Source: Priapulus caudatus
Taxonomy: Eukaryota > Priapulida > Priapulimorpha > Priapulimorphida > Priapulidae
NCBI RefSeq assembly: GCF_000485595.1
Contig: NW_014577986.1
Span: 92,683-138,061, forward strand
Reading direction: 5' to 3'
Length of the DNA: 45,379 nt
Of this stretch, positions 98 through 44,600 are shown piece after piece (the first letter of the stretch is position 1; each line of letters opens with the position of its first letter). The notes under the pieces were generated by a model that worked only from the letters and a program-made list of their open reading frames with translations, searched no databases and was not told the origin of the DNA. Position numbers and translations under genes: made by a program.

Positions 98-2183
98 GCG
101 ACACTGGTGCGTAACACGACGGATGAGAACGAGGCGCGCATTCTCTACGAGTATCTCGCCGAGGCATCCGTCGTCTTCCCTAAAGTTTTCCCCGTCATGT
201 GAGTAGATGCGTCGCGTCGCCGTGGCAACGACATCGCGACGCGATCCAGGGACTGTGGGGGGCGTCACCTTTTGCTCAGTGCAGTTTGATGAAGAACTTT
301 CTATAAACTCAGAAAATTTAACCCTTTACTTTACAACAGATGTTTTACTTTATTTTTATTCGTAAAATTTATTTTAACGAGTTTAAAACTTAAACATTTT
401 TAACGGTTTCATGTAACGTCGTTTCGGTTAAACTAGCGGTTTTCAGGAACCTAACAACGACATTAATGGGGCAATTTGTAAAAAAATTCCTAAAAACACT
501 AAAAGTTGGTAAAAAAAAATATTTTATTCACCGTCCATCTTTGTCGTGGTTTTCGGGATTCCTAACTACGACGCTAACGGGGGGAATTGTCACGTATACG
601 TTGTATATCAAAAAAATGCTTACCGTCCGTCCGTCCGTGCGTCTGTCGTCGCTTGCAGACACAGCCTCGTGGACGCTAAGATCAACAGCGTGCTGGCACT
701 CTGCCACGACCAGGTAATCCTGAACGCTGTGCAGAGCATCATCCAGAACATGATCGCATACGAAGACTCGTCCTCGCAGCAGCTGCAGCTCAGCTACCTG
801 CAAAGTACGTCTGCCACGCTGCCGCGCCGGGGCCGGGGGCGGAGGAGGGCCGGGGGCGGGGGCGGGGGCAGAGTCACGCTCTGGCTCAGGTTTTGGAAAA
901 TGGGGAAATGTTTTTCGGGTTGACTTGTCTACTGTGATTGCTGGCTGTCGTATCGGTGCGGTGTACTTACGTGTGGTTCATACGTTGCAGGCTGTGGATT
1001 CGGAGGGCTTTGGCGGTTTGCGGGGCCTTTTTGCAAGGTGAGTGCTCAGGTCGACTCAACACGCATTGCCGGTTCCCGTTTTCAACGTGATTTCCTGTAC
1101 TGTCTGATGTAGCCACGTTTCTAACGCTCACTTGTTCGTCAGAGCCGATGGCGAGCAGCGATGTTTGTGGTTGTTCACTTGTTTGTTGCAGACGACGGTG
1201 TGCGACCCGCGTTTCTAGCCGTTCACTTGTTTATTGCAGGCGTCAGTGAGCAACCCTCGTTTGCAACGCCCCCCTTTTTTGTTGCCGACGTCGGGTGTTT
1301 CTACGCGTTCGCTTGTTCTCGTTGCCGACAACATGCATCTTTGACGTTCGCTTGTTTCTCGTTGCCGACGACGGCGAGCCCGGACAACGCCGAGCTGTTT
1401 GTGACGTTCGCTTGTTTCTCGTTGCAGACGACGGCGAGCCCCGACAACGCCGAGCTGTTTGTGAACTGCCTCGAGGCGATGGTAGAGACGGGGTTGCCCG
1501 GGGACGATGCGGAGCAGCTGTCGCAGTACCCGAGCACACTCTCCGTCTCCTCCAACCTCAACCTCTCCTCCTCCATGTCCAGCCTCACGCTGAGCTCCCC
1601 GACCGAGAAGGAGGTCACGGGGGTAAGCAAGGTCACGGGGAGGTCACGGGAGTAAGCGAGGTCAGCTGGAGGTCGCAGGGGTGAGCGGGAAAGCGGGGGT
1701 AAGTGGGGTCAGGGGGAGGTCGCAGGGATCAACAGGGTCAGAGGGAGGTCATGGGGTTAAGCGAGATAACGAGTAAGCCAGGTCACGGGATGAGACGGGA
1801 TGCTTGCGGATAAATGCGCGATTCTGGCAGGCGCAAGGGTTACGAGTAACGACTAACTCAGACGAAATTTAAGAAATCGAGGAATTCGCGGGAATCGGTC
1901 TCGTGTCGGGGGCGCGCGTCTCGGCGAAACGCCAACCGAGCGGTCGTCCGAGATCGCGCGCGGAAACCACGAACCTGAGATGCCTGCCGCCGCTTATGTC
2001 TGTCTTTCTCTCTCACGCGTCCTCTCTGCGCAGGTGCTGGAGTACTCGCAGGCGAACGGAGCGACGAACAGGATGCGGCACGGCTCAGCGAACCAGGTGT
2101 GCAAGCAGCGATCGGTCGGCGGCAGCTTCAAGCGCAAGAGCTCCAAGAAGAACGGCGCAAACCCGCAGACGCAGTACGAGTAG
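98..2183 (+). CDS. C-terminal part of an unidentified protein (5 exons, 5' end outside window)
   Basis: Five exons join in frame: 98-198, 659-804, 991-1037, 1428-1622 and 2034-2183 (TAG at 2181-2183). All have AG acceptors and GT donors, and phases match at each junction (2, 1, 0, 0). The partial product is about 213 aa. Its first part is helical and leucine/valine-rich (for example EARILYEYLAEASVVF and NAVQSIIQNMIAYED), as in an armadillo/HEAT-type or similar alpha-helical domain. Then come a short GFGGLWRFAGPFCK segment, a serine-rich stretch (NLNLSSSMSSLTLSS) and a basic tail with SFKRKSSKKNG. I do not recognise the family, and the helical reading is by composition only. The 47-nt exon 991-1037 rests on splice sites and phase alone and is the least certain. 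The 60-bp duplication at the fourth exon's acceptor and the repeat array at its donor are described separately. Confidence 0.75.
1174..1463 (+). repeat. Minisatellite carrying copies of a splice acceptor
   Basis: Five or six decayed copies of a unit built on GTTCGCTTGTTTCTCGTTGC occur here. The last two (1344-1403 and 1404-1463) are exactly 60 bp and nearly identical. The final copy contains the real acceptor (TTGCAG, exon start 1428) and the first 36 nt of the exon. The copy before it reads TTGCCG, so it lacks the acceptor AG although it carries the same downstream exon-like bases. Earlier copies near 1174 and 1222 retain TTGCAG. Confidence 0.8.
1608..1800 (+). repeat. Minisatellite carrying copies of a splice donor
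   Basis: The exon ending at 1622 finishes GAGGTCACGGGG followed by the donor GTAAGC. The intron then repeats variants of this junction about 6 times at 18-30 bp spacing: GAGGTCACGGGAGTAAGC, GAGGTCGCAGGGGTGAGC, GAGGTCATGGGGTTAAGC and others. Several keep a usable GTAAGC or GTGAGC donor. Confidence 0.75.
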
Positions 2184-2606
2184 TCGCAGGGTCGCCATGG
2201 AGAGTCCGTTGCCGCGGCGACGCAGCCGCAGTGGTGACTGTTCCTATGAGGATGTCGGGGCGGCGTCTGCTGGCTCGACCTCTGCGGTAAACTGTTTGAC
2301 CTTTGAACCCGGGTCGCGCGGCGGCCGGCTTTACCGTGCCGGAGCGTCATTTGTTGGGGATGAAGGAGAAACTTGTTGAGATGCGAACCGTCTCCTCCCC
2401 TCTCCCCTTCCTCTCCAGGCGTCGTCGCATGGCCGGGCGGCCGGGCGGCAGACGCGTGCGAGAGAGACGAGGCGGCGTTATATTTGCCAGTCATTCACGA
2501 CATTCGTAAAATGTATTTTTATGCCTTCCTAGTGGGTCTTAGCAAGAGACGGGAGTTCTGCAGGAAGTAGGCTTATACTGATGGTGAGACAACAGCGAGG
2601 GAGGTG

Positions 2607-2690
2607 AGGTGAGAGAGAGAGAGAGAGAGAGAGAGTGAGTGTGTGTGAGAGAGAGAATGAGAGAAAGAGAAACAGATTGAGGGAGTCAGG
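2607..2690. repeat. (GA)n-rich microsatellite
   Basis: A run of GAGAGA with GTGTGT interruptions lies inside the probable 3' UTR. It continues more loosely to about 2930. Confidence 0.8.
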
Positions 2691-2907
2691 AAGAGTGTGT
2701 GAGTGATAAACTGTGAAAGGAGGGTAGGGGAGAGAGAAATAAGAGAGGAAAGGGCAAGGGAAGGTGCAGAAAGACAAAAGAGGTAGGGAGCACGTGTGTG
2801 AGTGAACAAAAGTTTGAGAGGGAAGGGGTGTGTGTATCTGTACGTGCGTGTGCGCACGTGTGTGAGAGGGAGAACGACAGACAGGGACAGGCAGAGATAG
2901 TGAGACA

Positions 2908-2913
2908 AATAAA
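2908..2913 (+). terminator. Candidate polyadenylation signal
   Basis: AATAAA lies 725 nt after the stop codon of the unidentified gene. A second AATAAA at 5125-5130 is also on this strand but is 2.9 kb away. Confidence 0.4.
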
Positions 2914-3293
2914 GACAGAGAGAGTTTAACATGCCAGGTCATCACTGGCATTCGTCTATCATATATCTTTATTTGAGATTTATCCTATTAGAATCTTAAA
3001 TCCTTTGCTTTGTGAATCATCGTTACCCTATTTTATGTGAAGAGGGAGCAATTCCCATATTTTGTCATCTAGAATCAATGAGCCATTGTTGCATTGTACA
3101 GTGTAATGTAAAGAGAGATGAATGCATGTGCCGCATTCTGGTTGGAGGAATTCGCATTAATCGGCTTGGAATCTGTTGTTGCCATTGTTGTTATCGTTGT
3201 TGTACCTAAAAGATGAAAAGTTATATATTTTGGTTTCGATTATCGTACTCTCGTGTTGTTGTGAGTTTTTTCCGGCTCGGGGGAGCTTCGTAC

Positions 3294-3384
3294 GCGGCAC
3301 CTCTCCGTACACGCCGCGGCGCCTCTCCATACGCGCCGCGGCGCCTCTCCGTGCGCGCCGCGACGCCTCTCCGCACGCCGCGGC
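3294..3384. repeat. GC-rich minisatellite, about 22 bp x 4
   Basis: Four copies of a unit like GCGCCTCTCCGTACACGCCGCG, with point changes, stand in tandem. They lie at the upstream edge of a CpG-rich stretch that extends to about 3.9 kb. Confidence 0.8.
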
Positions 3385-3689
3385 ATTAGTGCACGCGTGA
3401 GGAGAGCCGGTGCGGACGGAGAGCGTAGTACAAACTCCCGAGAGTCGGCTCGACGAAGGTGACCACTGTGTTTAAGTTTTGCCGTCTTCGATCGCGGGCT
3501 CTGCGAGGGATGCATAAAGCGTGTGGGAAGCGATGATCGTGTGTGAACCACGCACACCCTTACTGTTGACAGATGTAGTGGGATGCAAATGGTTTTCACA
3601 CTTACTGCTATCACCTTGAGTGGCGGTGTTTCATCTGTCCTTTAATCTAATGAATGGACGTATGTGCGAGCGAATTATCCACACGCCCT

Positions 3690-3890
3690 GTCAGAGGACA
3701 TTGTTGCCTGGTCGTTCGGTCGGTCAGTCTCGCCCAGTTTGTAGGCGGTTTGTCACGCGTGTGCACGCCAAAATGGCGGATATGCAGCAGTTCGCTGCTA
3801 CTCGTTATTTTAGAACGTTCTATCGCAACGCTGATTGGCTATGGCTGCGTGATGTCACGCACAGCAGGCAGATAGGGTAGTTCTATCCTA
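3690..3890. promoter_or_regulatory. CpG-rich stretch with CCAAT and CRE-like motifs (possible promoter)
   Basis: The segment has ATTGGCT at 3834-3840 (a CCAAT box on the opposite strand) and, ten bases on, the near-palindrome TGCGTGATGTCACGCA, which contains a CRE/ATF-like core. A start-like context, CCAAAATGGCGGAT, lies at about 3769-3782 and opens only a 35-codon frame. CpG density exceeds that of the AT-rich DNA to the right. No gene can be attached to it on either strand, so a promoter is only one reading. Confidence 0.25.
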
Positions 3891-5340: not shown

Positions 5341-5346
5341 TTATTT
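5341..5346 (-). terminator. SSBP1: Candidate SSBP1 polyadenylation signal
   Basis: The plus strand reads TTTATT here, giving AATAAA on the minus strand about 400 nt after the SSBP1 stop codon. Another TTTATT lies at about 5286. Confidence 0.4.
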
Positions 5347-5742
5347 ATCTCTTCGACGATTGCTGTAAACTTTCGTATATAAAAGACAACATGATATCCA
5401 CAATGAAATTTATCTGCATGGTTCCCATGACTGAAGGAATGCTAAAATTGGCCACAATACTCTATCCTTCATAAACACCTTAACTGTAAAACACGATTCT
5501 GGGCCAATATTTTAGGTTGCTGTAGCACCAAAAACGTGAACATACTCATACAGATACGTTCATGGTAGCGCTCATGACAACTTTCTCACACGATAGCCAT
5601 ACCCGTTTTAACGACAGGCATTCAGCCAAAACAAGGCACACTAAACAGCATATGTTGCTGCTACAGTCCAATCTACACTATGACACTGGTTGAATATATA
5701 CCAACTTAAGACAAGGAATGCCAAGAAAACATGCATCGAGTT

Positions 5743-8206: not shown

Positions 8207-9606
8207 ATGGCGAATCTCGTGCAGGTATTTTTCATTACGGCGATGTTTGGCCGGCATTTATCATGTCGTCGTCGATTAGTGCAATATCATTTATGTAAAT
8301 GATCAACGCGTCAACGACGGTTACTGTTATAGTATTAACGTGGCACCTTTGTGTTGATGGAGATCGCCAATGTTATTTGTAGTGCTGTGCATGTACATAA
8401 GCGTGTCTTGATACGTGACACATGACATGTGTGATCACTAGGCTCTACATCAGTACATGGCGCAATTCTAGTGTGGGAACCCGGGTCTCATCATGCATCA
8501 CGTGTACATCCCCTTCATGTAAAGTGAAATAAATACACGACAACATACTTGCTACTTAACAAATTAAACAATTACCGTTTGTAGGACATAGCAATATAAC
8601 TAGTAGCACTGTAAGCAGGATATTTGAGAAGGCATGCTGTTTATGGACGGATGGAGTGGGGAGGGCGCGGGAGGCTTGGCAGGTTTAACCAATTGGAGTC
8701 ATATACGCGTGTCATAAGCAGCCCCCAATACACAGGTACACTCGATCGGTTCGGAGACATACGTTAAGGTGGGTGGGACTGTGGTGAGATTGTCGAAATT
8801 AAACAGCTGGAAATTAAGGCATGTTGATTAGGGAGGTAAGACAAGGACGAAGGAATATGACACATGTCCCAAATTAGCTTCAGCTTTGAAGGCATATTGG
8901 AACCGGTGTTTAATTAGAGGATTGCGAAGAACCCTGATATAAGTATGACTGATAACTGTGTGTTTTATTAGCCAAGTGATATCCTGAAGGAATTGGTGTT
9001 GAAAATCACAACATCAAAGAGGCGAGAAAGAGAAAGAATCCTTCTGGCTGTGACATCACTTTTGGAGAATGGAAAAGGTAGATAAATAGTTGTTATATAT
9101 TTGGATATAAATTTGATAATGAATGTGATATTTGTTAAGGCAACACATAATACACTCACGTGGCCAGCTTCTTCTCTGTGTATTACAATATTCTATATTA
9201 TATAGATGTTCAAGACAATACCGTAAAAGGAATACTGAAGACCCTTTCACTAACCCTGTCAAGGTAAGTTCGCAACTGTGTTTTAACTGCAGCACGTCAC
9301 CTTATGTAATTCATATTGTCATCATTTGTTGTGTATTCCTCTCACAAAATCTTACACTGTTTGTGTTTTTCATCGAACATATTCTGCGACTCTGCTTAAT
9401 TTATTCGATATCACCACTGCATTGGTTTGATGCTCAAACGTAGTGTAATAAATATTTGAATTTCATGGCATTGTCAGGTATCAGGACAAGAAATCGCGAC
9501 AGTATGTGGCGAAAGTTCTTGTATCTCTGGCGTCCAGCAACGGTCCGGCGACGCTGTCCTGCATGACCAGTGTCCTGTCCGAAATCAAGCAGACGTCGGT
9601 TGCAAC
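8207..9606 (+). CDS. GCN1: GCN1 exons 1-4: initiator Met and first HEAT helices
   Basis: Exon 1 (8207-8224) codes MANLVQ and exon 2 (8972-9077) continues [19 protein letters not shown], matching the human N terminus where KVTT and a KERRE-like cluster follow at the same distance. Exon 3 (9206-9263) gives [16 protein letters not shown], like human AVKGLCKLFCLTLHR. Exon 4 (9478-9606) gives [20 protein letters not shown], matching the human YRDAASRRAL helix. Phases are 0, 1, 0 (nt 2) and 2 as required. The ATG was chosen because it is the only upstream one followed by a donor in the right phase. Intron 1 (8225-8971) shows no repeat or second gene. Confidence 0.9.
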
Positions 9607-11626
9607 GTGAGTACTGCAAGGCGACCAAAGAGTAAAGTACGAAACTGCAGTTCGATTACGGTCGGGGTTTGTACATTGTACACGTTTGTACAACTTTAGT
9701 TATGCCTGTTACGGAGTTCGTACACTGCCCCCACGAAGCCTAATAGAGCTGACAAATATGGTTTTGCGATTACGACACAGGTATTGGGACGATAAGGTAT
9801 TGGGACTTTACGAATCAAAGTAGACTAGCATCGATGTGGGTTACACGTGCGATTGTGTTGGTGTAAATATTTTGTGCAACTTTCGTTGTGTTGACGCTAC
9901 AGTCAGTCGACGTCGCGCCTATGCCTCAGCGCTCTCGTGTGGACGGCCATCGTCTGTAGAAGCCTGTTCAAGAGCGCGGATGATTGTAAAGAGCAGTCGT
10001 TCACCAAACTGGCAAGTAGCTTTAATTAACGTGACGATTCTTCGCAGTGCACAACGATTTAAACGAATCTAAGAGCTAGAGCAGCGGGGATGCTGCAGTG
10101 AAATTATTGTATTGTATTGTACAATAACGTATTGTATTGTATTGTCTAGATAACATGCGAGGTGGGATTCGAGAGATTAGTGGGCGCGGGCGGATGTTTA
10201 TTTAAAAAATAGAATTCTATGTCGCCGTTCCGCTTGCACGACAGTGTGTGGCGATCATCGGATCTTTAATCTTATACCATGTAGGTGGCGCTACAAGCAC
10301 AGTTACTGGACGGGAGTCTCGCGGCGCGTAAGAGCGTTCTCTCGAAGAGCGCCTACAACAAACTACGACGAATATGGAAGATGGTGAGTGCAGGCTTACG
10401 CTCGCGGATGAAGAGGCAGGGTATGTCCCTCCGAGGTATTCCTTCCCTAAATGCTCAGCTCGAGTTAAACGAAAGAGGGATAGAGAAAAGCCTGGCTTTC
10501 GCGTTTCCTCGGGGATGTTTAGGGGTCATGACAACACTGGTGTGTCTGGTTTACATGTGACGGGTGGAGCTAACTTGTAGATGCCAGCTAACGAGGCTTC
10601 ACATGATCGTGACACTGGCATGTCTGCTCTTGGTGTGCTAGCTACAGCTGTGTCTTAGATACTAGCTAGCGAAGTTACCCGTGACTCTGTACTCTCTGTC
10701 TAGATGTGTTGTTTACAGCTGAGTTGTAGTAGATGCCAGCTAACAACATTACGTGTGACTCTGTGTACTCTCTGCTGTAGGTGCCGGGGACGGCTGAGCT
10801 GTACGGTGATGCGATGCTAGCCGGCGACGCCGGGATGAGCGGAGTCTGCATGCTGGCGTGTCTCATGCGATTCTGGAGCGAGACGAAGAACGTTGCTGCC
10901 ATCAGCAACTACAAGGTAAACAATGTAACGTCCCGCGAAGGACGTCTGCTGCATACTACGCATAGTCCTTGTTGCCGATGCCTGATGCGAAAGGGAAAGG
11001 CAGATATTATGTTATTCTCCACTTCTCTATGTTGTAGTGACAGGAACGAGTGACTCTTGCACGCTCTGTTCAAGTCGTCACTATCGTGATCACCGTTTAG
11101 CATTTGCGGTAGCGCGAGATGGATGATGCGTTTGTATCACGTGCGACGTGAGTTGTCGCTGCGCGTCACGTACCGATTCGTGACCGCATTAGCGATGTTG
11201 CCGGCTGTGCAATCGGCGATGTGACGCTGACTCACATACGATCTGTTGATGGCACCCACCGTGTAGTGGCAGTGTGAGTTGCGTGTCTGCGTGGGTAGCT
11301 GTCGCGGATAGCTGTCGTGTGTTTTGCTGACTCGCCCGCATCGTTGTTCTTTACAGAAGCGTTTCCTTGAGGTGTACATTAAGGTTGTACTGAGCAGCAA
11401 GACTAGACCACCGGTGCACATCCTGGTAAGATATCTGGAATCCTCACGACACACACACACACTGAATAGCTCACTCTTGCCAGTATGTGTCAGTGATCGA
11501 CTGGGTTTAATAGATGATCGCTCGACTGTTTGACAAGTTCTTCTAAAATGTTCCTATCGATAGGTCAGACTTTTGTGTGACAGCTTGCGTAGAACTGTGT
11601 GTATGCTGTGCATTAGAGTGATTACA

Positions 11627-11674
<48 letters not shown>

Positions 11675-14600
11675 TGTACGCGTTTGTGCGCATGTGTACA
11701 TGTGTGTGTGTGTGTGTGTGCGTGTACGCGTGTGCACGTGCGTTGCCGGTTGTGACGTGTCTCATTGTAAATGATCTTTCTAAGGAGTGGAGCAAGTGGC
11801 TGCTGCGGCATGCCACTCACGAGGAGTTCAAGGGCATCTTTCTCCCCGCCGTGACGAAGGCAATGCTCAGAAGTCCTGAGATCATTCTCGAAGGTAGGTC
11901 CTCTCCCAGCGCTCGAGGAAAGACGGGTGACCTTGCTTGATTGAATTGTCTTACGGTTCGAGCAGAAGATGTTAAAATAGCGATGGTTTTCACTCGGTGA
12001 TAGGGTTGTCACGTTTCCATTGCAGGCGTGGGTCATCTGTTGTCCGGACTTTCCATTGACCTGAGTGCGTATGCATCCGACCTGGGAAAAAACATCGGAA
12101 GTAAGAGAATTGCAATACATATTATTTTTAAGTCGAGTTCTACTATATTATGTTCCGTCATAGAGTGATGAGACTCGAGCTCTGTTAGTGGCCACCTCCA
12201 TACAATACACTTGTCCGTGAGGGACACTTTCAGGGGTTCCCTTGGGTGACCCTTCCATACAGGTTCGGATATCATCTATTGCATCCTCGGTCGTGCCTGA
12301 ATTTGTGGCGACGTTCTCACTAGTTTGTGACGTCATTCGTTTGCGCGGTTCTCTGATACCTCGTCGTTCGTACGGCGAGATTCGGAACACCGTGATACAT
12401 GCAGTACGGAACACTGTGATACATGCGGTTCGGAACACCGTGATACATGCAGTACGGAACACTGTGATACATGCGGTTCGGAACGTCGTGATACGCGCGG
12501 TTCGAACGTAGCGTTGTTCTTTGCAGCGAACCTCTACTCGAAGGACGAGGGGAGTCGCGAGGAAGCGTGCGTCGCCACCAAGCATCTCGCGAAGCAGTGC
12601 AGTGATCCGGATGCCATCGAATCGCTCACACGCCACTACTTCAGCATCTTAAACGGTAGGCGTCACCGTCGTGTTGCCACGACAACGCATTCGCGTGCCA
12701 ACAGCCGCCTGTGATACAATTGTGGTGAGAGTACACGGCATATTGTAGTTGCAACAGCAGCCTGGTAACGCTACGAAGCTCTTTGATATCATTGCGATAA
12801 TTCTAACCATTCTTACAACGTCCTGTGATGTACAACAGGAGTTATTATAGTAGTTACAACAGCTTACAACGTCCTGTGATGTACAACAGGAGTTATTATA
12901 GTAGTTACAACAGCTTTTTAAGATGCTTACGATAGCGCATATTATACAACAGTTTCGGTTATAGTTACAGCAGCCTCTAATATAAAAACAAAAATACTCT
13001 ATACAAATCAATATAAAAATCACTTTATACAAAAGTAAAACTACTCTGTTCTTACAAAAGCCCATAATATACAGCAGCTGATATTTTAGTTTCCGTCAGC
13101 TCGTAACATCCTCGTAGGAACCACTCGGCGAACTCACCCGCGTGCTTCTCGTGTTACCCTGGTTTACCAGAGCCGCGTCGTTGCTTCTCGTGTTACCCTG
13201 GTTTACCAGAGCCGCGTCGTTGCTTCTACGTCGTTGCTTCTCGTGTTACCCTGGTTTACCAGAGCCGCGTCGTTGCTTCTCGTATTACCTTGGTTTACCA
13301 GAGCCACGTCGTTGCTTCTCGTGTTACCCTGGTTTACCAGAGCCGCGTCGTTGCTTCTCGTGTTACCCTGGTTTACCAGAGTCTCATCGTCGAGCGTCTT
13401 GTCATTGTTTGTGCTTGCAGGAGCCGAGGGTAAGTTGTCGTTGGCGGCGCAGCGTACGAGCGTGCTGAGCGGCATCGGCAGCCTGTCGAACAACGCGGTG
13501 GCCGGGAGCGCGACTCAGAGCCTCACCGCGGCCGTCGCCGACATGTTCGTTCCTCTGCTGCAGCAGGAAGGTAGGCCAGCATCCCCGCAGCATCCCGCCT
13601 GTATTCCCAAACATCCCAGCATCCCCACAGCATCCCGCGCCTGTATTCCCAAACATCCCAGCATCCCAAACATCCCAGCATCCCAAACATCCCAGCATCC
13701 CAAACATCCCAGCATCCCAAACATCCCAGCATCCCCAAACTGCCGCAGCATCCCAAACATCCCAGCATCCCAAACATCCCAGCATCCCTTCCCGCATCTT
13801 TCCGGCATCCCTCCTGTATCCCTTTAAGAATTTTGTGCAGCACGAGCAAGTTTCTCCAGAACGAATCAAAGCCTTTTTTGCGTAATAATAATAATAATAA
13901 TATTCATGCATCTTTATCATAATAATAATAATAATAATAATAACAAATGGTGTAATCGACAACACGTAACATGGACGTCGTGCGCGTTCTTGTCACACTC
14001 TGCATGTTGTCGTTGTTTCAGTGCACGCCGGGCTTACGCTGGTGCAGCTGCGCCTGGCGGGCAGCTGTCCAGCGTGGTGCGAGCGATTCACCTAACGCGC
14101 GGTGCCGGACAAGCTCGTAGCGTTTCTTCCGACCGGCATCGCGCTCGAAGTCGTCGACGTCGGCCGTGGCGAAACGCCTAACCTGCTCTGCATGACGGCA
14201 GCCTCTCTCGTCGTGAGTGGTCTAGAAGCGCTCCGGAGTCGTAGGGATGCGCGGTCGTTAGCGTTACATTAGTCGTTACCTGCCTCTGTTGCATGAAATG
14301 CAGCCTTCTGCTGCATCGTGAGTTGCCACAGCGTCCCGGGTTCGTTAAGGGATGCTTCATGTCAGTGTAGCTTTAATTAGTCGTCTGTTTTTGGAGGAGA
14401 TGGAGTCGCTGCAGCATCGCATGCGTCACACACATCTTGATAGAATGTGATTAATGAGCCAGTAGAGATTGGCGATGTATTAAATAAATCATACATGTAG
14501 TGTATGTATATGGTAACATGTTATATACATAAAGTTAGCGAAGTTATATATATATATATACAAACTGTATTGCACTTGATCTTGCTGACATGTGCTAACT

Positions 14601-32600: not shown

Positions 32601-35600
32601 ACAGACGACGCGCAGTTGCGCAGCGTACGACCGCGTGCATCGCGTAGAACGACTGCGCCGGCTAGAAACGGCTTCGCGCTGGAATCGGACGAAAAATGTG
32701 AATAAAAGTCTTCGGGTGGAAAAAAAACGGACTTGGAAAGCATCATCCGAGTGAGATACACGACTTCCTTACATGATTGTTGTTAGCCGGAGAAGCAGAC
32801 GAAAAGAGCAGCCTAGAGCGGCGGGAAATCTCATCAGTACCGACGGCGTCAAGAAAGCCGACGCTGATTNNNNNNNNNNAGCATCCCAAACATCCCAGCA
32901 TCCCAAACATCCCAGCATCCCAAACATCCCAGCATCCCTTCCCGCATCCCTCCGGCATCCCTCCTGTATCCCTTTAAGAATTTTGTGCAGCACGAGCAAG
33001 TTTCTCCAGAACGAATCACTTGCGTAATAATAATAATAATAATATTCATCATCTTTATCATAATAATAATAATAATAATAATAACAATGTGTATCGACAA
33101 CACGTAACATGGACGTGCGTGTCCGTTCTTGTCACATCTGCATGTGTCGTTGTTTCAGTGCACGAGGGCACGCTGGTGCACGCGCTGGCGCAGCTGTCAG
33201 CGTGGTGCGAGCGATTCACAACGCGCGTGCCGGACAAGCTCGTAGCGTTCTTTCGCACCGGCATCGCGCTCAAGTCGTCGACGTCGCCCGTGCGAAACGC
33301 CTACCTGCTCTGCATGAACGCAGCCTTCTCTCGTCGTGAGTGCAAGCGTCCGGGTCGTTAGGGATGCCGCGGTCGTTAGCTTAATTAGTCGTTACCTGCT
33401 CTGCATGAATGCAGCCTTCTCTCATCGTGAGTGCAAGCGTCCGGGTCGTTAGGGATGCTGCGGTTGTTAGCTTAATTAGTCGTCTGTTTTTTGGAGGAGA
33501 TGGAGTCGCTGCACATTCGCATGCGTCACACACATCTTGACTAGTAATGTGATTAATAGCCAGTAGAGATGTGCGATGTATTATAATATACATGTATGTA
33601 TGTATATGTATTATAATAACAGTTAAGAAGTTACACATAACTTTTTACTTGATCTTCTGACTGTGCTAACTTACAACTGTGACTTAGAGATTACAACATA
33701 TGGGGCAGTGTTGTGCGTGCGTGCGTGCGTGCGTGCGTGTGGGGGTGACAACGACACGAGCGGGCGTTGCGATCGCGTCAGACATACCAACGTACGTGCG
33801 GCGTTTGTTTTTCAGGGGACGCCCTGCCTCAGGCCAGGGAGCTGCTGCCAGTGCTGCTGAAGACTGTAGAGAAGGCGGCCGGTCAGTCGAACCAGATGCT
33901 GCTTGTGACGGAGGCCGTATCGGCGTCGCGAATCCTCGTCAAGCTCGCTGCCGTCTACGACGACATAGGTGCGCCATCTAGCGATCGTCGTCAGTACCGA
34001 TGCGGACGCTTTATTTTTATTTTATTTTTTTCATTTATATATATGATAAGTTCGAATAAAAAGGGGAATGATTCTATTGAAATGTGAATCGTTATCATCG
34101 TGGCGTGTTTTTTTTTTAGATAACGAACTGACGACTTTCTGGAGCACGATACTCGACCCCAAGAAGCAGCTGCTGGTGTCGGAGAAGTACCTGCTAGCGG
34201 CGGGCGACGACGCCGCGTTATACGGCCTCACCCGCCTCGTCGAGTCTCTCGTCATGGCCCACCCGCAGCGCATGGACGCGCACATGTGAGTACGGCTCCT
34301 CCAGGGGGCGCCGCGTGAGTACGGCTCCTCCAGGGGGCGCCGCGTGCGCGTGGTGGTGCGATCGCGCACACGTGAGTACGGCTCCTCCAGGGGGCGCCGC
34401 GTGCGCGCGGGGGTGCGATCGCTTCCGACTCGCATGCTAGTAACGTCTGCCGCGCGCGTCTGATCGACGTACTTCTGCACCTGTGTGCATGTAAAGATCA
34501 GGTGTGCTTTCTTGACGCCGTGGTACTGATGAGATTTCCCGCCGCTCTAGGTGTCTTTCGTCTGCTTCTCCGGCTAACAACAATCACGTGAAGGAAGTCG
34601 TTATCTCACTCGGATTGATGAGTCCGTTTTTTTCCACCCCGAGACTTTTTTTCACATTTTCGTCCGATTCCAGCGCGAAGCCATTCTACCGTGCAGTCGT
34701 CTACGCGATGACGCGGTCGTCGTGGCAACTGCGGTCGTCTGTCGCCGCGAGCGTGCGCAAGCTGATGTCGTCGCTAGGGGGCGCCAGCCTCGCCCTGTCC
34801 TTCCTGGCGGAGTTCAAGGACATGCTGGCCACGCAGAAGGTCTGTTATGCCGCTCTCCCTCGCATGTTTTTGTTGTTGTCGGTATTTTCACGCGAACATG
34901 TTGCTGTCGCGAATTTGATTGTTTGTGGTTACGAATTGCAGTTTGTATAAACTGTGTAGTTCTTTTGTTATTATTATTGTTATTATTATTATTATTTGTA
35001 GTAGTAGTAATATCACCAGCACTACCACCATCACTAACACTACCCCCCAGCAGCAGCAGCAACAACAACAACAACAACAACATCAGTGGCAGCAGCAGCA
35101 GCAGCACCACCGCTGCCGCCGCCACCATCACCAGTAGCATCATTATCATCTCTCACTCTCTCTCTTCTTTCTTCCCCTTTCTCTCTATCTCTCTCACTCA
35201 CTCGCTTCTCTCTTGCTCGTGCGTAGATCGGCTACGACCTTGTGAAGGCAGACGCCTGCGACCCTGACGACCGCGACGCGCAGAGCAAGCGCGCGGGACG
35301 CATCCTCGCCGAGGCCAACGCCGCGTTCGCCGCCGTGCCCGACCTCACCGCCCGCGACGCCGACCTCATCGCCATGGAAACACTGCTGACGGCCCACCAC
35401 CCCCTCGTCGGTACGTCGGGGTTTCGCGTTTTTTTTAACGTTGTGCGTAACGCGACGGGGTGACAGTAATCGTGACTGTGTACTGTCGTTTATGTTTACT
35501 GTAAGCACGAGTTAAATTAATAATTATGTAAGTCCGATTAGGCAATCGTGGCGATGAATTGGGCCCGAGTGCCCGACGTTCCTTCTGAATTTCTCAGCGA

Positions 35601-38600
35601 GAACCCTTCAATAGCTCTCTCTCTCTCTCTCTAGAGACAGAGTTTCTCTCTCTCTGTGACAGTGCATTTCCTGAACTCAAAGAATGTGGCATGGTGAAGT
35701 GATCTATCGATGCATAATTTTCGGTCAAAGTGTTTGTGCAAATTATTTTATTGTGTTTTTTCGCTCGCTGTAGTCATGGAGAATCCAGACCTGTGGACGG
35801 ACGTGCTGTGCTTGATGCGCGTGGACGCGGGCGAGTTTGTGTCGCGGCACGCTGACGCCATTGTCGTGATGCTCGACGCAGAACCCACGCTCGACGAGGT
35901 ACGCCCTCCCCCGCGCCATCTCCGCCGGACGCTCTCTTGTCGTGCCATATGCGACGTCTATCGACGTAGACGCGCGCTCGGGTTTCTGTAATCCGGCTGA
36001 ATGCTCTGTAGAATTGTCTTGTTACGGTTACGTGGTGGCCCGCCGTTGTGTTGGATGATGTCTGGTCGTGTCATGTGAGCTCTTGTTATGTTACATGACC
36101 CCTTGTTGTGTTACATGACCCCCTTGTTGTGGTACGTGTGCCCCTAATTGTGTTATTTGACACCCAATTGTGTTTAATAACCTCCATTTATATGACCTGA
36201 CCCCTGGTTGCATTACCTGAACCCTAGTTTTGTCGGAATCACACGAATAATAACGATAAAAATACAATCAACTCTACAAACGCATCCTGCGACGATCCCG
36301 TAAATGACAGTTACGTGTGGAATCGTAGTGCGGTCGCACGTGTGCGGTCACGAGCGTTGAACGCGTCACGTCGCGTCGTGTGTTTCAGACGTGGCGTAAC
36401 GTGATCGCGACGCTCGCCCGCGTGTCGCCGCGAGCCGCCATGCCGAAGCTCGTCGATCACGTGATCAGTTGCCTTGACGACGTCGGCGCGCAGCAGATAT
36501 CGCTCGCCGACTACGCCGTCTACATGACACCAGAGGGCGACGTCTACGACAAGTCCGTGATCGAGAGGTATGGGACTTCGCTTGCGTTCACTTGTTTTTG
36601 CGAAAAAACGAAGTGCTGAAGTGAAGTGAGACGAGTAGAACGTGTTTATCGTTGCAAGGCATTTCTCGGTATATCTTGCTCTGCCTTGCACTTTAATAGC
36701 GAGCTGTGTAATGGAGGTTGGGTCGTTAGGATGAGTTAGCATATTCACTAAGTCAACGTTACATCCAAGCTGCTTTAGTACCAGTGAAAAAAATACACGG
36801 GGGCTCGGGGTGATCTAGCCCCCGAAATGCCAAAAAGAGACCCCGTAAATTTGCATGAGTTTAATGCAAACCAAATTTTAGAGTGCTATTTTCATCCACG
36901 CGAGCTTGAAAAGTAGCCCCCGAAAAATAAATTATATTTTTTTCCCTGTTTAGTGCTATGTGCTAGAGTGCCATGTGTGGGGGTCACAACAAGTAGGGGT
37001 TGTTTGCTGCTGCAGTGATTGCTACAGTGAAATGTATGGACAATATTCGTGTTTGTAGCATCAAGGATGAGGACCAGAAGGGCAACATCAAGCGAGAGAG
37101 CAAGGTGTATAGCTACAAGGAGCAGCTTGCTGACTTAGAGCTACGAAAGGTGAGCGACACCCTTCCACGTCGGCATCAGCGGGAGGGGAGTGTCTGAGTG
37201 ATCAGCAGTGTGATGGATGCATGGTGGCTGGACAGCAGTCATTCTGTCAGTCCTCTTCTATGTTAGCTTTTACTGGTGGTTGAGGGTGTTGGCGCGCGTG
37301 GCAATAAACCAGCGAGGGAATCCGAGGAATCTTGTGACGCCACGTTAGATTAAACCGAGGAAACTTTAATGTAACTTAACTAGAGCAGAGTATGACATTT
37401 CTAGATGGACGCATAGGTGAGGGGTAGGTTAGCTGTGTGTGTGCGTGTATGTGTATGTGCGTGTGCATGCGTGTATGTGTATGTGCGTGTGCGTGCGTGT
37501 ATGTGTGTGTGTGCGTGCGTGTGTGTGTGTGTGTGTATGTGCGTGTGCGTGTGTGTTGGCATGGGTGCGGGTGGGAGCGACGATGGGCCCACCTCTCACG
37601 TAACGCGTCGCTGCGTGCGTCCCTTGCTACAGGAGCTGGAGAAGAAGAAGAAGAATAAGGAGGAGAAGCCCCAGCTGAGTAAGAAGCAGCAGGAGATGCT
37701 GAAGCTGCAGCTGGAGAAGGAGAGTCGCACGCGCGCCAATCTCAAGAAGGTAAGATGGATGACACAACTCGTTGTTAAACGACGTAGGTGGCGCCTGTAG
37801 TGCGACGTGTAGGTGGCGCCTGTAGTGCGACGTGTAGGTGGCGCCTGTAGTGCGACGTATAGGTGGGGGGGGCTCCCTGCTAACTTCGGCGATTTCTTGG
37901 TAATAATCGTGCTTGGACTCACGGCAACGAGATTTGCGAGATAATTAGCGATAATTAAGTATAATTAACTATAATTAAGTATAATTAACTATAATTAAGT
38001 ATAATTAACGAGTCGCGGTTTGATCTTCTCGACAGCTTGATGTGCGACTCTCGAAGTCGATGGGCATCGTTAGCGCGATCGTCGACGGCAACGCAGGGGG
38101 CGCCGCCGTGCACCTGCCACGGCTGCTCGAGGGGCTGCTGCGGCTGTTGCCGTCACCGCTCGCCGCCCCCCACGCGACACGCGCCTTCCTGCAGCTCTCT
38201 GCATGCGATTACACGGACGACCTCAAACACCTCGGTGAGTGCAGGCGGTGAATTGCTATAAACAATAATAACGATGATTAAATAATTGATTAACAAAATA
38301 AATTATGATGATGGTGATAATAATAATAACAATAATAATCATAATATGAAAAAATATTTTAAAAAAATATTTTTTTTAACAAATATAATAAATAAAAAAA
38401 AAATATAAATAAAAAAACAAAAACAAAAAACCAATAATAATGATTAAATAAGTGATAATTAATAATAAACGACGTATACGAACGATCAATGCAATTTTGC
38501 GCGGAGACGCGAACGTGGGTTGCGAGCGAGTGAAACAGAATCCGATTGCATCACGGTCGTTCATTTCTGCGTTGTTGCCGTCGTCAAGGTGACCTGATCG

Positions 38601-41600
38601 GTCACGTGACGCTGCGTATGCTGGAGCCGGCGTGTGAGCTGGACAGCTGGTGGTGCCAGGAGGCGCTGCAGACAGCCGTGCGACGCGCCGTCGCCATCGT
38701 ACACGCGACGACCGCTGCGGACAAACACGCCGAGAGATTCTCCGCCCCAGGTACGACGCGATACCCGCTCCCCCGGGGAGGAGGAGGAGGGGGAAGAGAT
38801 CTCCGCCCCAGGTATGAACGACGCAGACACCCCCTCCCCCCGGGAGGAGGGGAGGGGAGGGAGGGAGGGGGGAGAATTCTCCGCCCCAGGTACGACGCGA
38901 CACCCTCCCCCCGGGAGGAGGATGAGGGGAGGGAGGAGGGGAGGGGAGAGGAGGGAGGGATGGGGAGAGATTCTCCGTCTCAGCGTACGACGCGACACCG
39001 CCCTCCGCCCGGGGGAGGGGGAGGGGAGGGAAGGAGGGGGGGAGAGATTCTCCGTCTCAGGTATGACGCGACACCCCCTCCCCCGGGGGAGGGGAGGGAG
39101 GGAGGGGGAGAGATTCTCCGTCTCAGGTACGACGCGACACCCCCTCCCCCGGGGGGAGGGAAGGAGGGCGGAGGGAGGGGAAAGGAGGGAGGGAGGGGGA
39201 GAATTCTCGCGCCCCAGTAGCGACGCGACCACGTTGATCCCCCGGGAGGAGGGGGAGGGGAGGGGAGGAGGGAGGGAGGGGAGAGATTCTCCGCCCCAGG
39301 TACGACGAGCGACACGTGATCCCCCGGGGTAGGAGGAGGAGGGCAGGGAGGGAGAGGGGAGGAAGGGTTTCTCTCCGTGAAGTGCTTTAGTGGATGGGTG
39401 AACTTTCGCGTTGCCGCTAACGCGTGGGGTTAATTGTTGTGGACGGCAATAGTAGAGAGAGGTATGATGGGAGAATGTTGTGCAGGAATGACCGAGTTCG
39501 TTTGTGTGTGTGTGAGCGTATGCGCGGTGCGTACGTGCATAGATGAGTGTACGTGTGTGTATGTGTGTGCGTGTGCGTGTGTGTGCAATGTGTGTGTCGT
39601 ATGTGTGTGTGTGTGTGCATGCATGTCTGCGTGTGTGCTGTGTACAGACAATGACTGTGAACCTGCCCCTCAGAGTAGGACCACGTCGGTAACACAGATG
39701 TTTCGTTTCCCTCGTGCCGCGGACAACTCTAGGTTTCGCGTACTGCCTTCCGCTGCTGGAGAGTGTACTGAGGCGCGGCGCGCGCGGCGGTGGAGGCCGA
39801 CGAGAAATGTCCTCTGCCCAGGCCCTGAAAGGTCATCTCACGCACGGCAAACCTACTCGCAACCCGGACGCTGATACCGACGACGACGATGATGACGAAG
39901 CTAGCGTGGTGAGCACAGCGTAGTGGTAGAGGGGTGGCAGTAGCAGGGTAGCAGTAACATGGTAATGGTAGCAGGGTGGCAGTAGCGGGGTAGTGGTAGA
40001 GGGTGGCAGTAGCAGGGATAGCTGTAACATGGGAATGGTAGCAGCGTAGTGGTAGAGGGGTGGCACGTAGCAGGGTAGCAGTAACATGGTAACAGTAACA
40101 AGGTAATGGTAGCAAGTGGTGGCAGTAACAGAAATGGTAAAGGGTGGCAGTAGCAGGGTAGGCAAGTACATGTAATGGTAAGCATGGTAACAGTAGCGGG
40201 TAAACAGTAGGTGGGGAGCAGTAAACATGGTAACAGTAGCATGGTAGTCAGTAACAAGGTAATGGTAGCATGGTAAACAGTAGCATGGTAGCAGTAACAA
40301 GGTAATGGTAGCAGGGTGGCAGTAGCGGGGTAGTGGTAGAGGGGTGGCAGTAGCAGGGTAGTGAGGTTTTGGGATAGTGAATTTATATACAACGGGTAAT
40401 TGCAGTGAAGTTGTCCGTTAAATGATACGTTATTATAATTAGACTAATCATTCTGACTATGAATTCAAAACCATTTCATACGAATTCCTTTCTCCACACA
40501 TATTATATAACTATATAATATGTTGGGAAGAATACGTATGAAATGGTTTTGGATATTCATAGTCAGATGATTAGTCAATTGTCAGAACGAAACGTACTTG
40601 TTTCGCCCCTGTGTTTTGGCAGCAATGGCCCGGTACCTGTTGCCGCGCCGACAGATGCTGCCGCAGCTGCTGACGGCACGTGTCGCTACGAGCGCCGGCC
40701 GCCTCCACCAGATTGGCGTGCAAGGCCAATGCTCGAACGGCCGTGTGTGGCGAGTGGCATCGACGGCTGCGCCAGCGCCACCCAGGGGAGATCGACGTAC
40801 TACTGGCTTGGCCTGCAGTCTCCGCTCTCACCGTCAGGAGAAACGGCTCTTCAGGTATTATGTGCGCGTGCGTGCATGCATCCATGCGTTGCATAACGAT
40901 TATTATACATTTGTCATATGTGTCTGCAGTGTCTGATCGTAGTGGTGCTGATATATATGTTTGTTCTGTGTGCGTGCGTAGCGTGCGTACCTATGGTGCG
41001 CGTGTGTCTCCATGTATATCTCGCAGTGTCTGATGGCAATGATACTGGTGATATACTCAAGCATGCGCGTGCGTACATGCATGTGTGCGCGATGTGTGTA
41101 TACATCGCTCTCCCATGTATATCTAGACACATGGTGTCTGATGGCGATGAATGCTGCGTATATATACCAGCAAGCGCGTGTACATGCATGCGTGGCGCGA
41201 GTGTGTGTATACATCGTCTCTCTATGTATATATCTCGACACAGTGTCTGATGGCGATGATGCTGGTATATACCAGCATGCGCGAGTACATGTATGTGTGC
41301 GCGATGTGTGTATACATCTCTTCGTATATATCTCGACACAGTGTCTGATGGCGATGATGCTGTATATACAGCATGCGTGTGTACAATGCGTGCGTGCGTG
41401 ATGTGTGTATACATCGTCTCTCTATGTATATATCCTCGAACAGTGTCTGATGGCAGATGATGGCTGGTATATACCAGCATGCGCGCGTGTACATGCAATG
41501 TATGGCGTGATGTGTGTAATACATTCTCATGTATATCTAGACTCAGTGTCTGATGGCGATGAAGCCGGTATATACCAGCATGCGTGTGTACATGCGTGCG

Positions 41601-44600
41601 TGCGTGATGTGTGTATACATCTCTCTGTATATCCTCTCGACACAGTGTCTGATGGCGATGATGCTGGTGCTGCCGCTGCGACGAGGAGATGGACGAGGAG
41701 CAGGGCATGCGACTCGTGCAGAGAGTCTGGGTCGTCAGGCACGATGAGGAGGAACGACGAAGCGATCCAGATCCTCGCTCTCAGGTTCGTTGTCATCCTC
41801 CTCGATGCTTGGTTTATCACTAATGGAAAACGTAAAGAGGAGAAATGGATGGTAGATATGGCTAATAATAATAGTACTAAGGGGAAACATACGGGCGGGG
41901 GAGAAATGGATGGTAGATGTGGCTATAATGGGACTAAGGGGAAACGTAAGGGGGAAGCAAAAATGGACGGTAACTATGGCTATAATATTGGCTGTAAGGG
42001 GAACAGAGGGGAATAATACTACTTGGAAGATAATCGTTTAGTATGGCTTATTTGTTTAACCCCTGCATCATCACACACCACACTTATGCTCTGTAACAAC
42101 CTCACTAATTCTTCATGCAGCCGCACTTTCCACATGCGCATACTGTAACCCCCACCAAACACACACCACACACACCCCCCCACGGCCAGCGCAGCATCCA
42201 CGGTCGCTCGGCTGCGTGACCTGACGACCTTGCCGCGTGACCTTGCAGGCTGTGGGACGAGACGGGGATGAGCGTTGCCGCGGCGATGTGTTCGCGACTC
42301 ATCGACGACGTGATCCACGACGAGGGAGTTGTTCGCCGCGCCGCCGCCGAGGCGATGTCTCGCGCGCTAGAGCTGCACCGCGGCCGGCATGGACGCCGCC
42401 CTCAGCGCCATCTACAACACGTACGCCACCAAGCTCAAGGTACGTTCACTGTCGGTGGCGACGCCGACGCCGCCTTGGTGTGTTTGCTTGTTAGTGGCGG
42501 TGCTGATAAAGGTGTTGGCATGTTCGTTTGTTTTGGGCAACTCATATGTGACTGAACTTAAGCTATGTTTACTATGTTAATGACGCCTACGCCACAAAGA
42601 TGAAGGCTGATGCTGTTTACTAAAGTACATTTGCATATTAAATATAAATACTAAATGCATTTGGTAAACATTTGTGTGTTTTGTAATGAAGTTGACATTA
42701 ACCTGGAGTTATAAGCTTCACACTATATAACGTTAAAATCTATGAGTAGTGTCTGTACAGTATGACAGTGTTTGTAGATACACAATTCTGCTGCTAGGTG
42801 GTGCCACCAGTACTCGATCAGTTTGGCCGACTCGTGGCGGAGAAGGTTGGACGAGTGGCCGGCCAGAAGTGGTCTGGCTCTGACCATTGGCAAATTGTCT
42901 CTTATCTCACCGAAGACCAAATCGGTACGCAATCGTCTTTTATTTCTCAAAAAATATTTTCTCTTCAAAATCGGATCTTTGTTGCTGGTTTGAACTCATA
43001 CTTCTTTCATGAGCAAATATCGATAGTAGAGTGTGTCTTAAAGTCACATGTCGATTTTATTTGCATTGATTATTCATCTCGAATTATTAAAATTATTTTT
43101 TTATTTTTTTATTTAAAATTTAAATAGAATAATAAAAGATAATACAAGTGTTAACGGAATAATGCAAATTATTTTTTATCACAATTTCAGGTCAGCTTTT
43201 CACGTTCTTCGTGGAGGAGGGGTTGGCTGATAGAAACGAGGAGGTTAGGAATCACATGCTGATGTCCGCGGTCGTTGTCATCACGGATCACGGCAAGGTG
43301 GGGGACGAGGCGCCTGTCAGTTATCACAGTTTACACACGCATTATCGAGTCTCGCAGCTGCTGCTAACCTAAGCTTTATATACGTGCATAGATTGTATAG
43401 TGTTTCCTTAGCAGTGAGACCACTGATCTTTATATACTAACTGGATGGCGCTTGGCCTATCCAGAGTCGGTGAGAAAGTGATGCCTCCATCTTTACTTCC
43501 ATTCCTAAAAGCTGAACTCTGCCAGTGTGCAATGCATAATTGGATTTGCATTTCAATTGGATAATAACTAAATGCAGCTTATTTTATCATTTTTATTCGC
43601 ATGAACACAAACTTTGATAAATACACTACAGAATTTATATTTTTTATAGATAGTTACATACAGCGAGAAAAATAGCATTTTTTGCTGCTGCGCGTGGTGG
43701 CCCCTGTCAGTCAGCATTAACGCGCGCGCGCCGTATTTGTCTCGCTAGGAGTGCGTGAACCTGCTGCTGCCGGTGTTTGAGGATTTCCTGGACAAGGCTC
43801 CGCCGTCTGGTCGCTTCGACGCTGTACGGCAGAGCGTCGTCATCCTGATGGGATCGCTCGCTCGTCACCTTGACACCGACGATCCCAAGGTCAAACCGAT
43901 CGTCGCCAAGCTGATAGCAACGCTCACCACGCCGTCACAGAAGGTAGGTGGGCAGGTGGGGGGGGAGGTAGGCAGGAGGGGAAGGTAGGTGGGCAGGTCA
44001 CGGGGAGGTAGGCAGGAGGGGAAGGAAGGTGGGGTAAGGTAAGTGGGAGAGAAGGAATGTAGCCTGGAGGGGGAAGATAGGAGGTAGGTGGGGTAAGGTA
44101 GGCAAGAGAGAGGAGAACTGTAGACAGGAGAGGGGGAAGGTAGACAGAAGAGGGGAGAAGGTAGGTCGGGAAAGGAAGGTGGGGGAAGGTAAATGGAGTG
44201 GAGTGGGAAGGTAGGCGGGAGAGAGGGATATGTTATGTTACTGTTACCGTGTCGTCTGCTGTATGTTTGATGCTTGTCTCTATCGTCTGTCTTTGTATCA
44301 CAGGTACAGGAGGCCGTAGCAAACTGCCTGCCCCCTCTCGTGCCAGCCATCAAGGCCGAGGCGCCAGAACTCGTGAAGAAGTTGCTCCAACTGTTGCTGG
44401 AATCGGAAAACTATGCCGAGCGCAAAGGTCAGTCGGCACATAGCGAATGCTCAGCCGTTAGAATTTCACTTAAAGCCATATTTTTATCACTATGATTTAT
44501 AAAATGATTATGATGGTGTTTCGTGCGAAACTCCCACTGGAGGAGGGTGTTACCACATAGAATAATATTTTGCACTCACTGTGTCTTTCTGACTTTGTAC

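What the first reader, a model, noticed from the sequence alone, without database searches (positions are those of the whole stretch)
1174..44230. Minisatellites seeded at splice junctions across two genes
About eight of the roughly 17-20 tandem arrays here have units that include the edge of the adjacent exon with its donor or acceptor: the unidentified gene at 1174-1463 (acceptor) and 1608-1800 (donor), and GCN1 at exon 7 acceptor (intron side only), exon 13 donor, exon 15 donor, exon 23 donor, exon 26 acceptor and exon 30 donor. Random placement would rarely give this. A shared process, such as replication slippage or repair at AGGT-like junctions or at transcription-linked structures, could be responsible. 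Tandem duplication of AGGT-containing DNA is a proposed route to new introns, so this genome may show intermediates. The other arrays (3.3, 12.4, 13.2, 13.6, 36.1, 37.8, 41.8, 45.0 kb) do not include exon edges.
Basis: partly seen in the sequence, partly recalled or inferred. Interest (0 to 1): 0.78.

Follow-up and report, generated by a model that had tools for sequence, protein, structure and literature searches.

The report
Minisatellites spanning exon edges ("mirages")
Several short tandem repeat arrays in an animal's NF1 and GCN1 genes duplicate the edges of exons with their splice sites; the arrays look real but are of a kind already described in lancelets, and their position is not convincingly better than chance in a stretch where a quarter of intron DNA is such repeats.

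Summary
The arrays are real. The 'unidentified gene' is the NF1 C-terminus; the other is the N-terminal half of GCN1. By TRF, 6 of 21 arrays in the clean gene bodies contain an exon edge (donors of n4, gL, gV, gCC; acceptors of n4, gY); a seventh (gN donor) starts at one. The 'exon 7 acceptor' repeat is intron-only. In all seven, the splice site joined to the coding exon is the exon-proximal copy; extra copies lie in the intron. Read-like second copies elsewhere in the window repeat two arrays (gV 8 units, gL 2 units).

Non-random placement is not robust. Whole arrays placed at random give 9.6 edge arrays against 6 seen. Single repeat units placed at random give 3.3 (P=0.09; 0.006-0.04 under stricter or more generous rules). 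Only 2 of 5 array donors are AG|GT, against 18 of 30 others. Introns with edge arrays do not show matching ends.

This matches the published 'mirages' of amphioxus, here in a bilaterian that is apparently not a lancelet. About 19 kb of the window (13.8-32.9 kb) is apparently garbled gap filling that repeats flanking GCN1 DNA; the finding does not mention it.

The parts
98..2183 (+). NF1 (neurofibromin) C-terminal exons n1 98-198, n2 659-804, n3 991-1037, n4 1428-1622, n5 2034-2183 (stop)
   Evidence: open spliced frame; spliced protein matches neurofibromin chains in the PDB (7pgp and others), E=3e-57, query 1-202
1160..1477 (+). acceptor array of NF1 exon n4: 6 diverged copies of a TTG(C/T)(A/C)G acceptor region (start by eye); TRF core 1342-1477, 60 bp x 2; the last copy holds the acceptor joined to the exon; the three copies just upstream read GCCG instead of GCAG
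1608..1800 (+). donor array of NF1 exon n4 (TRF core 1610-1687, 29 bp unit; ends by eye); first copy is the donor joined to the exon (GT at 1623); further donor-like copies at 1652, 1681, 1699, 1773
8972..45379 (+). GCN1, N-terminal half, exons gA-gFF (32 exons modelled; the window ends inside the gene); frame open from gA to gW (1021 aa) if 13571-33158 is read as one intron
   Evidence: Pfam PF24993 GNC1_N E=1.1e-38 and PF24987 HEAT_EF3_N E=2.9e-21; GCN1 of 7nrc E=8.5e-21; animal GCN1 proteins
33302..33483 (+). donor array of GCN1 exon gL: 91 bp x 2 (34 exonic bp plus intron); donor joined to the exon GT at 33336, second copy GT at 33427
   Evidence: the same two copies in the read-like duplicate at about 14198 and 14300
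34278..34422 (+). donor array of GCN1 exon gN (TRF 34286-34422; 8 exonic bp added by eye): three copies of GTGAGTACGGCTCCTCCAGGGGGCGCCGC, GT at 34286, 34315, 34372
38733..39373 (+). donor array of GCN1 exon gV: 8 units spaced 62-95 bp, each with a GAGATTCTCC..CAG-like motif and most with a GT donor next to it; first unit joined to the exon (GT at 38751)
   Evidence: 8 units in the read-like duplicate at 28500-27901
41006..41668 (+). acceptor array of GCN1 exon gY: about 6.5 copies of a 109 bp unit ending in ..CACAG|TGTCTGATGG; last copy is contiguous with coding sequence (exon from 41646)
   Evidence: lies in a stretch with frame jumps (gX-gZ)
43938..44230 (+). donor array of GCN1 exon gCC: AAG|GTAGGTGGGCAGG-type purine-rich units (TRF core 43940-44033, 40 bp; further extent by eye); donor joined to the exon GT at 43944; only 4-6 exonic bp
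   Evidence: by eye; not reported by TRF
13789..32879 (.). apparent assembly gap filling inside the gK-gL intron: 13728-15170 forward copy of 32880-34206; 15.2-25.0 kb poor matches to both strands; 25149-26848 reverse copy of 10637-9206; 27369-32868 reverse copy of 39776-34497; 10 N at 32870-32879

Best explanation
These are intragenic minisatellites in a genome region saturated with them; some began with a duplicated unit that happened to straddle an exon edge. A tandem duplication (slippage or unequal exchange) of a segment of tens of bp across a splice junction leaves the mRNA unchanged if the exon-proximal copy of the splice site stays in use, because every extra copy then falls on the intron side. 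Such arrays are therefore tolerated, while arrays extending further into exons are removed. Further copies arise by repeat turnover. This is the 'mirage' structure described in amphioxus genes. Shown here: the units, their orientation, the open reading frame across the modelled junctions (except gX-gZ), and two arrays repeated in read-like copies. Inferred: the duplication mechanism, which splice copy is used, the role of selection, and that the read-like copies are separate reads.
For: The 21 arrays (7 microsatellite-like TRF rows dropped first) cover 25.5% of clean intron bases, 19.6% of gene-body bases but 2.8% of exon bases. In 6 of 7 edge arrays the copy joined in frame to the coding exon is the exon-proximal one; in the seventh (gY) it is the copy contiguous with coding sequence, in a stretch with frame jumps. 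Using the first inner donor would put a stop in the extension for gL and gN and shift the frame by 29, 61 and 41 nt for n4, gV and gCC. The units are mostly unrelated: all-against-all comparison of the 21 arrays gives two cross-hits at E<0.01 (gCC-gV, gCC-n4 donor), all purine-rich by inspection. Whole-array overlap with edges is not above random. Published mirages match in structure.
Against: Single-unit null models leave a possible excess: 6 seen versus 3.30 expected, P=0.09 (0.030 if gN counts as a seventh); 5 versus 1.96 with at least 10 bp on each side, P=0.032; seeds limited to 50 exonic bp P=0.10 (0.037 with gN), to 25 exonic bp P=0.024 (0.006 with gN). In one search the null with at most 10 exonic bp gave P=0.003, but it cannot produce the overlaps of 13-50 bp that are seen. 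Several inner donors pair with U1 as well as the donor in use by my computation, so why the exon-proximal one should win is not explained. No RNA data.
Confidence: 0.75

Rival explanations
1. Seeding is targeted: breaks, slippage or transcription-linked structures at splice junctions start the arrays there.
For: Borderline excess under single-unit nulls, P from 0.006 to 0.10 by rule; arrays at both acceptors and donors, in two genes.
Against: No excess for whole arrays or with arrays allowed up to 50 bp into exons (5.85 expected, 6 seen, P=0.55). Array cover of intron bases falls towards the edges, 9.9% at 1-10 bp versus 21-22% at 51-200 bp, though arrays themselves lengthen introns. AG|GT donors are not over-represented, 2 of 5 versus 18 of 30. 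The window was picked because a reader saw the pattern.
Confidence: 0.13
2. The arrays are intermediates of intron birth by tandem duplication.
For: The mechanism is published for a duplication across an intron-exon boundary (PMC4974935 abstract) and proposed for mirages (PMC3087553 passages). One NF1 array copy carries an acceptor-like CAG, six bases, then GTGAGC (1237-1251).
Against: Of 35 introns, gW-gX has donor and acceptor flanks far more alike than shuffles (0 of 1000, z=5.9); by inspection that match is low-complexity coding sequence on both sides, in or beside the stretch with frame jumps. The seven introns with edge arrays range from 5.2% (gCC-gDD) and 7.4% (gX-gY) of shuffles reaching the observed score to 99% (n3-n4). 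No new intron was seen within an array.
Confidence: 0.05
3. The arrays give regulated alternative splicing by offering several near-equal splice sites, as the title of the human 6-16/IFI6 minisatellite paper describes.
For: Inner donor copies have the same or nearly the same computed U1 pairing as the donor in use for gL, gN, most of gV, and some n4 and gCC units. Read-through of the gV array stays open in the gene frame to 39220.
Against: The first inner donor of gL and gN adds a stop; those of n4, gV and gCC shift the frame; in gV the only in-frame extension before the stop (+234 nt) uses a weak donor. Amphioxus mirages are reported not to disturb splicing. No RNA data here.
Confidence: 0.05
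4. The edge arrays are assembly artefacts.
For: The window is badly assembled: 19 kb of apparent filler, and exons gX-gZ do not share a frame.
Against: The gV array has 8 units, with similar variants in units 4-6, and gL has 2 units, in copies that differ from the in-frame sequence mainly by insertions, as separate raw reads would. The n4, gL, gN, gV and gCC arrays adjoin exons that are in frame. Only gV and gL could be checked against a copy.
Confidence: 0.02

Closest known systems
Amphioxus 'mirages' (Adh3, globin BflGb6/BflGb9, PGBD5 and others; PMC3087553 and PMC3902484, passages seen; the Adh paper itself is not held)
   Different: The host here is apparently not a lancelet (GCN1 39% identical to Branchiostoma belcheri); splicing and length polymorphism not tested; seven edges within two genes
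Human internal tandem repeats at exon-intron boundaries in segmental duplications (PMC2812944, passages seen)
   Same: Minisatellites averaging 30 bp units, some at exon-intron boundaries, that can change splicing
   Different: Those vary between recent paralogues and were checked against transcripts; here no RNA
Human 6-16/IFI6 minisatellite with multiple splice donor sites (only its title in a reference list was seen; first author Turri is recalled)
   Same: Donor-containing tandem repeats
   Different: There, by its title, the repeats provide donor sites in a transcript; here use of inner donors is not known
[quoted passage not shown] PMC4974935, abstract)
   Same: Tandem duplication that includes splice signals
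   Different: No new intron shown here; the introns with edge arrays lack significant donor/acceptor similarity

Membership tests
[quoted passage not shown]
   6 of 21 TRF arrays contain an edge, a seventh starts at one
[quoted passage not shown] units tens of bp to about 160 bp | tested here: met
   donors n4, gL, gV, gCC (and gN) and acceptors n4, gY; main units 29-109 bp
[quoted passage not shown]
   no RNA; frame is open through gA-gW and the NF1 exons if exon-proximal sites are used
[quoted passage not shown]
   gV 8 versus 8 units and gL 2 versus 2 in the read-like copies, whose haplotype is unknown
[quoted passage not shown]
   GCN1 39% identical to Branchiostoma belcheri, the only lancelet compared, and 37-40% to 11 other animal proteins; Asymmetron and other lancelets were not compared
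[quoted passage not shown]
   seven introns with edge arrays: best 5.2% of 1000 shuffles reach the score (gCC-gDD), 7.4% for gX-gY, the rest 13-99%; one intron without an edge array, gW-gX, exceeds all shuffles in low-complexity coding sequence
[quoted passage not shown]
   no animal genomes are held; the genome search did not complete

The most novel reading that the evidence does not exclude
In this lineage mirage formation is targeted to splice junctions genome-wide and supplies raw material for new introns and micro-exons; the NF1 n4 acceptor array, where three neighbouring copies have lost the acceptor AG and an upstream copy (1234-1251) carries AG, six bases and GTGAGC, would be such an intermediate.
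Probability: 0.07. Interest if true: 0.75.

Novelty: new member of a known kind. Interest (0 to 1): 0.3.

Why it matters
If mirages are common outside lancelets, a second lineage becomes available for testing whether boundary duplications are neutral passengers or feed new introns. It also warns that such minisatellites go with broken assemblies: this window carries about 19 kb of apparently false, duplicated GCN1 sequence that begins in one of its minisatellites.

Tried and rejected
Rejected: two diverged alleles or a true inverted duplication for 27.4-32.9 versus 34.5-39.8 kb. In all 7 filler-against-clean pairs aligned the filler has more insertions than deletions (gap openings 50 versus 8, 27 versus 3, 46 versus 8, 21 versus 7, 11 versus 1, 9 versus 1, 12 versus 0); the eighth pair, filler against filler, is even (6 versus 6). 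The tblastn hits printed (over 24 bits) all lie outside 13789-32879. My LCS test for two interleaved strands at 15.2-25.4 kb was clear only in parts: forward z above 5 in 6 of 17 blocks, reverse z above 5 in 3 of the 7 blocks tested (the reverse was not tested before 21.2 kb), and forward z between -4.9 and 1.6 from 18.8 to 22.4 kb. How the filler arose is inference.

Tried without result: Rfam (0 matches); ARAGORN (0); Pfam on single ORF pieces (0 of 4); Pfam on the NF1 tail (0 families). The best PDB hit of the GCN1 piece, 8i9x chain LR (2898 residues, E=6e-62), is labelled 'Ribosomal protein L19', a label I cannot explain; the GCN1 label comes from 7nrc. Donor-versus-acceptor similarity of introns: one outlier, gW-gX, not convincing. 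A first motif count for gV with best-match search gave 2 versus 5 anchors; that mode seems to skip matches, and it was replaced (8 versus 8). Organism not identified: the GCN1 search scored only the 7996 candidates sharing most words and gave 14 hits; 12 of the 14 are in the identity table and 8 of them plus the window in the tree, which puts the window with two molluscs at support 0.33. The papers PMC306954, PMC1783408 and 10.1093/nar/gkf386 are not held.
Full report
What the window is. It is animal DNA holding the last exons of NF1 (98-2183) and the N-terminal half of GCN1 (8972 to the window end), both on the + strand. I located exons with tblastn using guides recalled from memory, then set the junctions by hand on the sequence: 37 exons, 35 donors of which 34 are GT and one (gD) is GC. 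The spliced NF1 tail matches neurofibromin chains in the PDB (E=3e-57). The spliced GCN1 pieces match Pfam GNC1_N (E=1.1e-38) and HEAT_EF3_N (E=2.9e-21), GCN1 of PDB 7nrc (E=8.5e-21; the best hit there, 8i9x chain LR, carries another label) and animal GCN1 proteins (14 hits). Identity to 12 of those 14 is 37-40%, with 39% to the one lancelet, so I infer that the animal is not a lancelet; its phylum is open.

A large part of the window is apparently not real order. The GCN1 frame runs unbroken from exon gA to gW (1021 aa) if everything between exon gK (ends 13570) and gL (starts 33159) is treated as one intron. That interval holds 13789-32879, which repeats the flanks: 13728-15170 is a forward copy of 32880-34206, 25149-26848 a reverse copy of 10637-9206, and 27369-32868 a reverse copy of 39776-34497. 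In all 7 filler-against-clean pairs aligned, the filler has more insertions than deletions (50 versus 8, 27 versus 3, 46 versus 8, 21 versus 7, 11 versus 1, 9 versus 1, 12 versus 0 gap openings). Between about 15.2 and 25 kb there are forward matches to 34.2-40.4 kb and, from about 20.7 kb on, reverse matches to 12.7-10.5 kb in the same stretch; a direct test for interleaving was clear only in parts (see Tried and rejected). I infer gap filling with raw long reads, begun at the 17-bp minisatellite of 13.6-13.8 kb, which resumes at 32880 after 10 N. Separately, exons gX, gY and gZ (40.6-42.4 kb) do not join in one frame; homologous residues jump frames within them, so this stretch is also poor.

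The edge arrays. On the clean locus (filler left out) TRF gives 21 merged arrays with period 9 or more inside the two gene bodies; seven rows that look like microsatellites were dropped before the count. Six contain an exon edge: n4 acceptor, n4 donor, gL donor, gV donor, gY acceptor, gCC donor. A seventh (gN donor) starts at the GT. The exonic part of the six is 4-50 bp. In all seven the copy next to the coding exon is the exon-proximal one: the first copy for donors, the last for acceptors. Six of these join in frame; gY is judged by contiguity with coding sequence in the poor stretch.

Are they real? The read-like copies serve as a check, if they are separate reads. The gV array has 8 units in the in-frame sequence and 8 in the copy, with similar TCAG-type variants in units 4-6 of both; the same search found 1 match in 11.8 kb of other clean DNA and 0 on its reverse strand. 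The gL duplication has 2 units in both. The n4, gN, gY and gCC arrays have no usable second copy.

Is the placement special? Nulls disagree, and all are given. Whole arrays at random in the gene bodies: 9.6 expected, 6 seen, P(>=6)=0.99, P(<=6)=0.05; circular rotation 9.7, P(>=6)=0.98; at TRF score 40, 6 of 23 with 10.0 expected. Arrays confined to introns but allowed 50, 25 or 10 bp into exons: 5.85 (P=0.55), 3.38 (P=0.10), 1.50 (P=0.003); with a hand-extended set of 21 arrays and 7 hits the P values are 0.45, 0.06 and 0.0008. The 10-bp version cannot produce the overlaps of 13-50 bp actually seen, so I give it little weight. One repeat unit placed at random: 3.30 expected, P=0.09 (0.030 if gN counts as a seventh); with at least 10 bp on each side, 5 seen versus 1.96, P=0.032; seeds limited to 50 exonic bp P=0.10 (0.037 with gN), to 25 exonic bp P=0.024 (0.006 with gN). 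Arrays cover 19.6% of gene-body bases and 25.5% of intron bases, but 6 of 72 exon edges (8.3%) lie inside arrays; array cover of intron bases is 9.9% within 10 bp of an edge, 21-22% at 51-200 bp and 55% at 201-400 bp, where arrays themselves have lengthened the introns. The fair reading is no robust enrichment, with room for a modest seeding bias.

AGGT and intron birth. Twenty of 35 donors read AG|GT. Of the five array donors two do (gV, gCC), so 18 of the other 30. If arrays were making introns by the published route, donor and acceptor flanks of the same intron should be copies. Among 35 introns one pair, gW-gX, beats all shuffles (0 of 200; 0 of 1000); by inspection it is low-complexity coding sequence, and gX lies in the poor stretch. 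The seven introns with edge arrays rank 4th (gCC-gDD, 5.2% of shuffles reach the score), 5th (gX-gY, 7.4%), 7th (gV-gW, 12.7%), 10th (n4-n5, 21%), 31st, 33rd and 35th of 35. Inner donor copies keep near-equal computed U1 pairing in gL, gN, most of gV and part of n4 and gCC. Use of the first inner donor would include a stop in gL (24 nt after the exon) and gN (2 nt), and shift the frame in n4 (+29 nt), gV (+61) and gCC (+41); stops follow 31 and 43 nt after the exons n4 and gCC. Read-through of gV stays open to 39220, where the only in-frame inner donor (+234) is a weak one.

Comparison with print. [quoted passage not shown] A passage of PMC3902484 reports the like for lancelet PGBD5. Passages of PMC2812944 report tandem repeats at exon-intron boundaries of human paralogues. 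The abstract of PMC4974935 reports an intron gained by a duplication across an intron-exon boundary in potato. The IFI6 donor minisatellite was seen only as a reference-list entry. I make no claim that mirages are unreported outside lancelets; my searches on this were made, in one open-licence library.

Verdict. Real arrays of a known kind in an animal that is apparently not a lancelet; the claimed non-randomness, the AGGT process and the intron-birth reading are not established here.

Noticed in passing
13789-32879: About 19 kb of apparent gap filling that repeats flanking GCN1 DNA in both orientations; any gene model or repeat count over it double-counts exons and arrays.
   Followed up: yes
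40623-42439: GCN1 exons gX, gY and gZ do not share one frame, although the exons before and after are clean; likely unpolished sequence between long arrays.
   Followed up: partly
1282-1367: In the NF1 n4 acceptor array the three copies just upstream of the acceptor joined to the exon have GCCG where it has GCAG, while two copies further upstream keep CAG; this may reflect selection against competing AGs or spread of one mutated unit.
   Followed up: no
1234-1251: One NF1 array copy reads TTGCAG, six bases, GTGAGC: an acceptor-like and a donor-like site around a possible 6-nt micro-exon.
   Followed up: no
9903-10011: GCN1 exon gD ends in a GC donor (CTG|GCAAGT), the only non-GT donor among 35 modelled.
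   Followed up: no
38751-39220: Read-through of the gV array stays open in the gene frame for about 155 codons.
   Followed up: no
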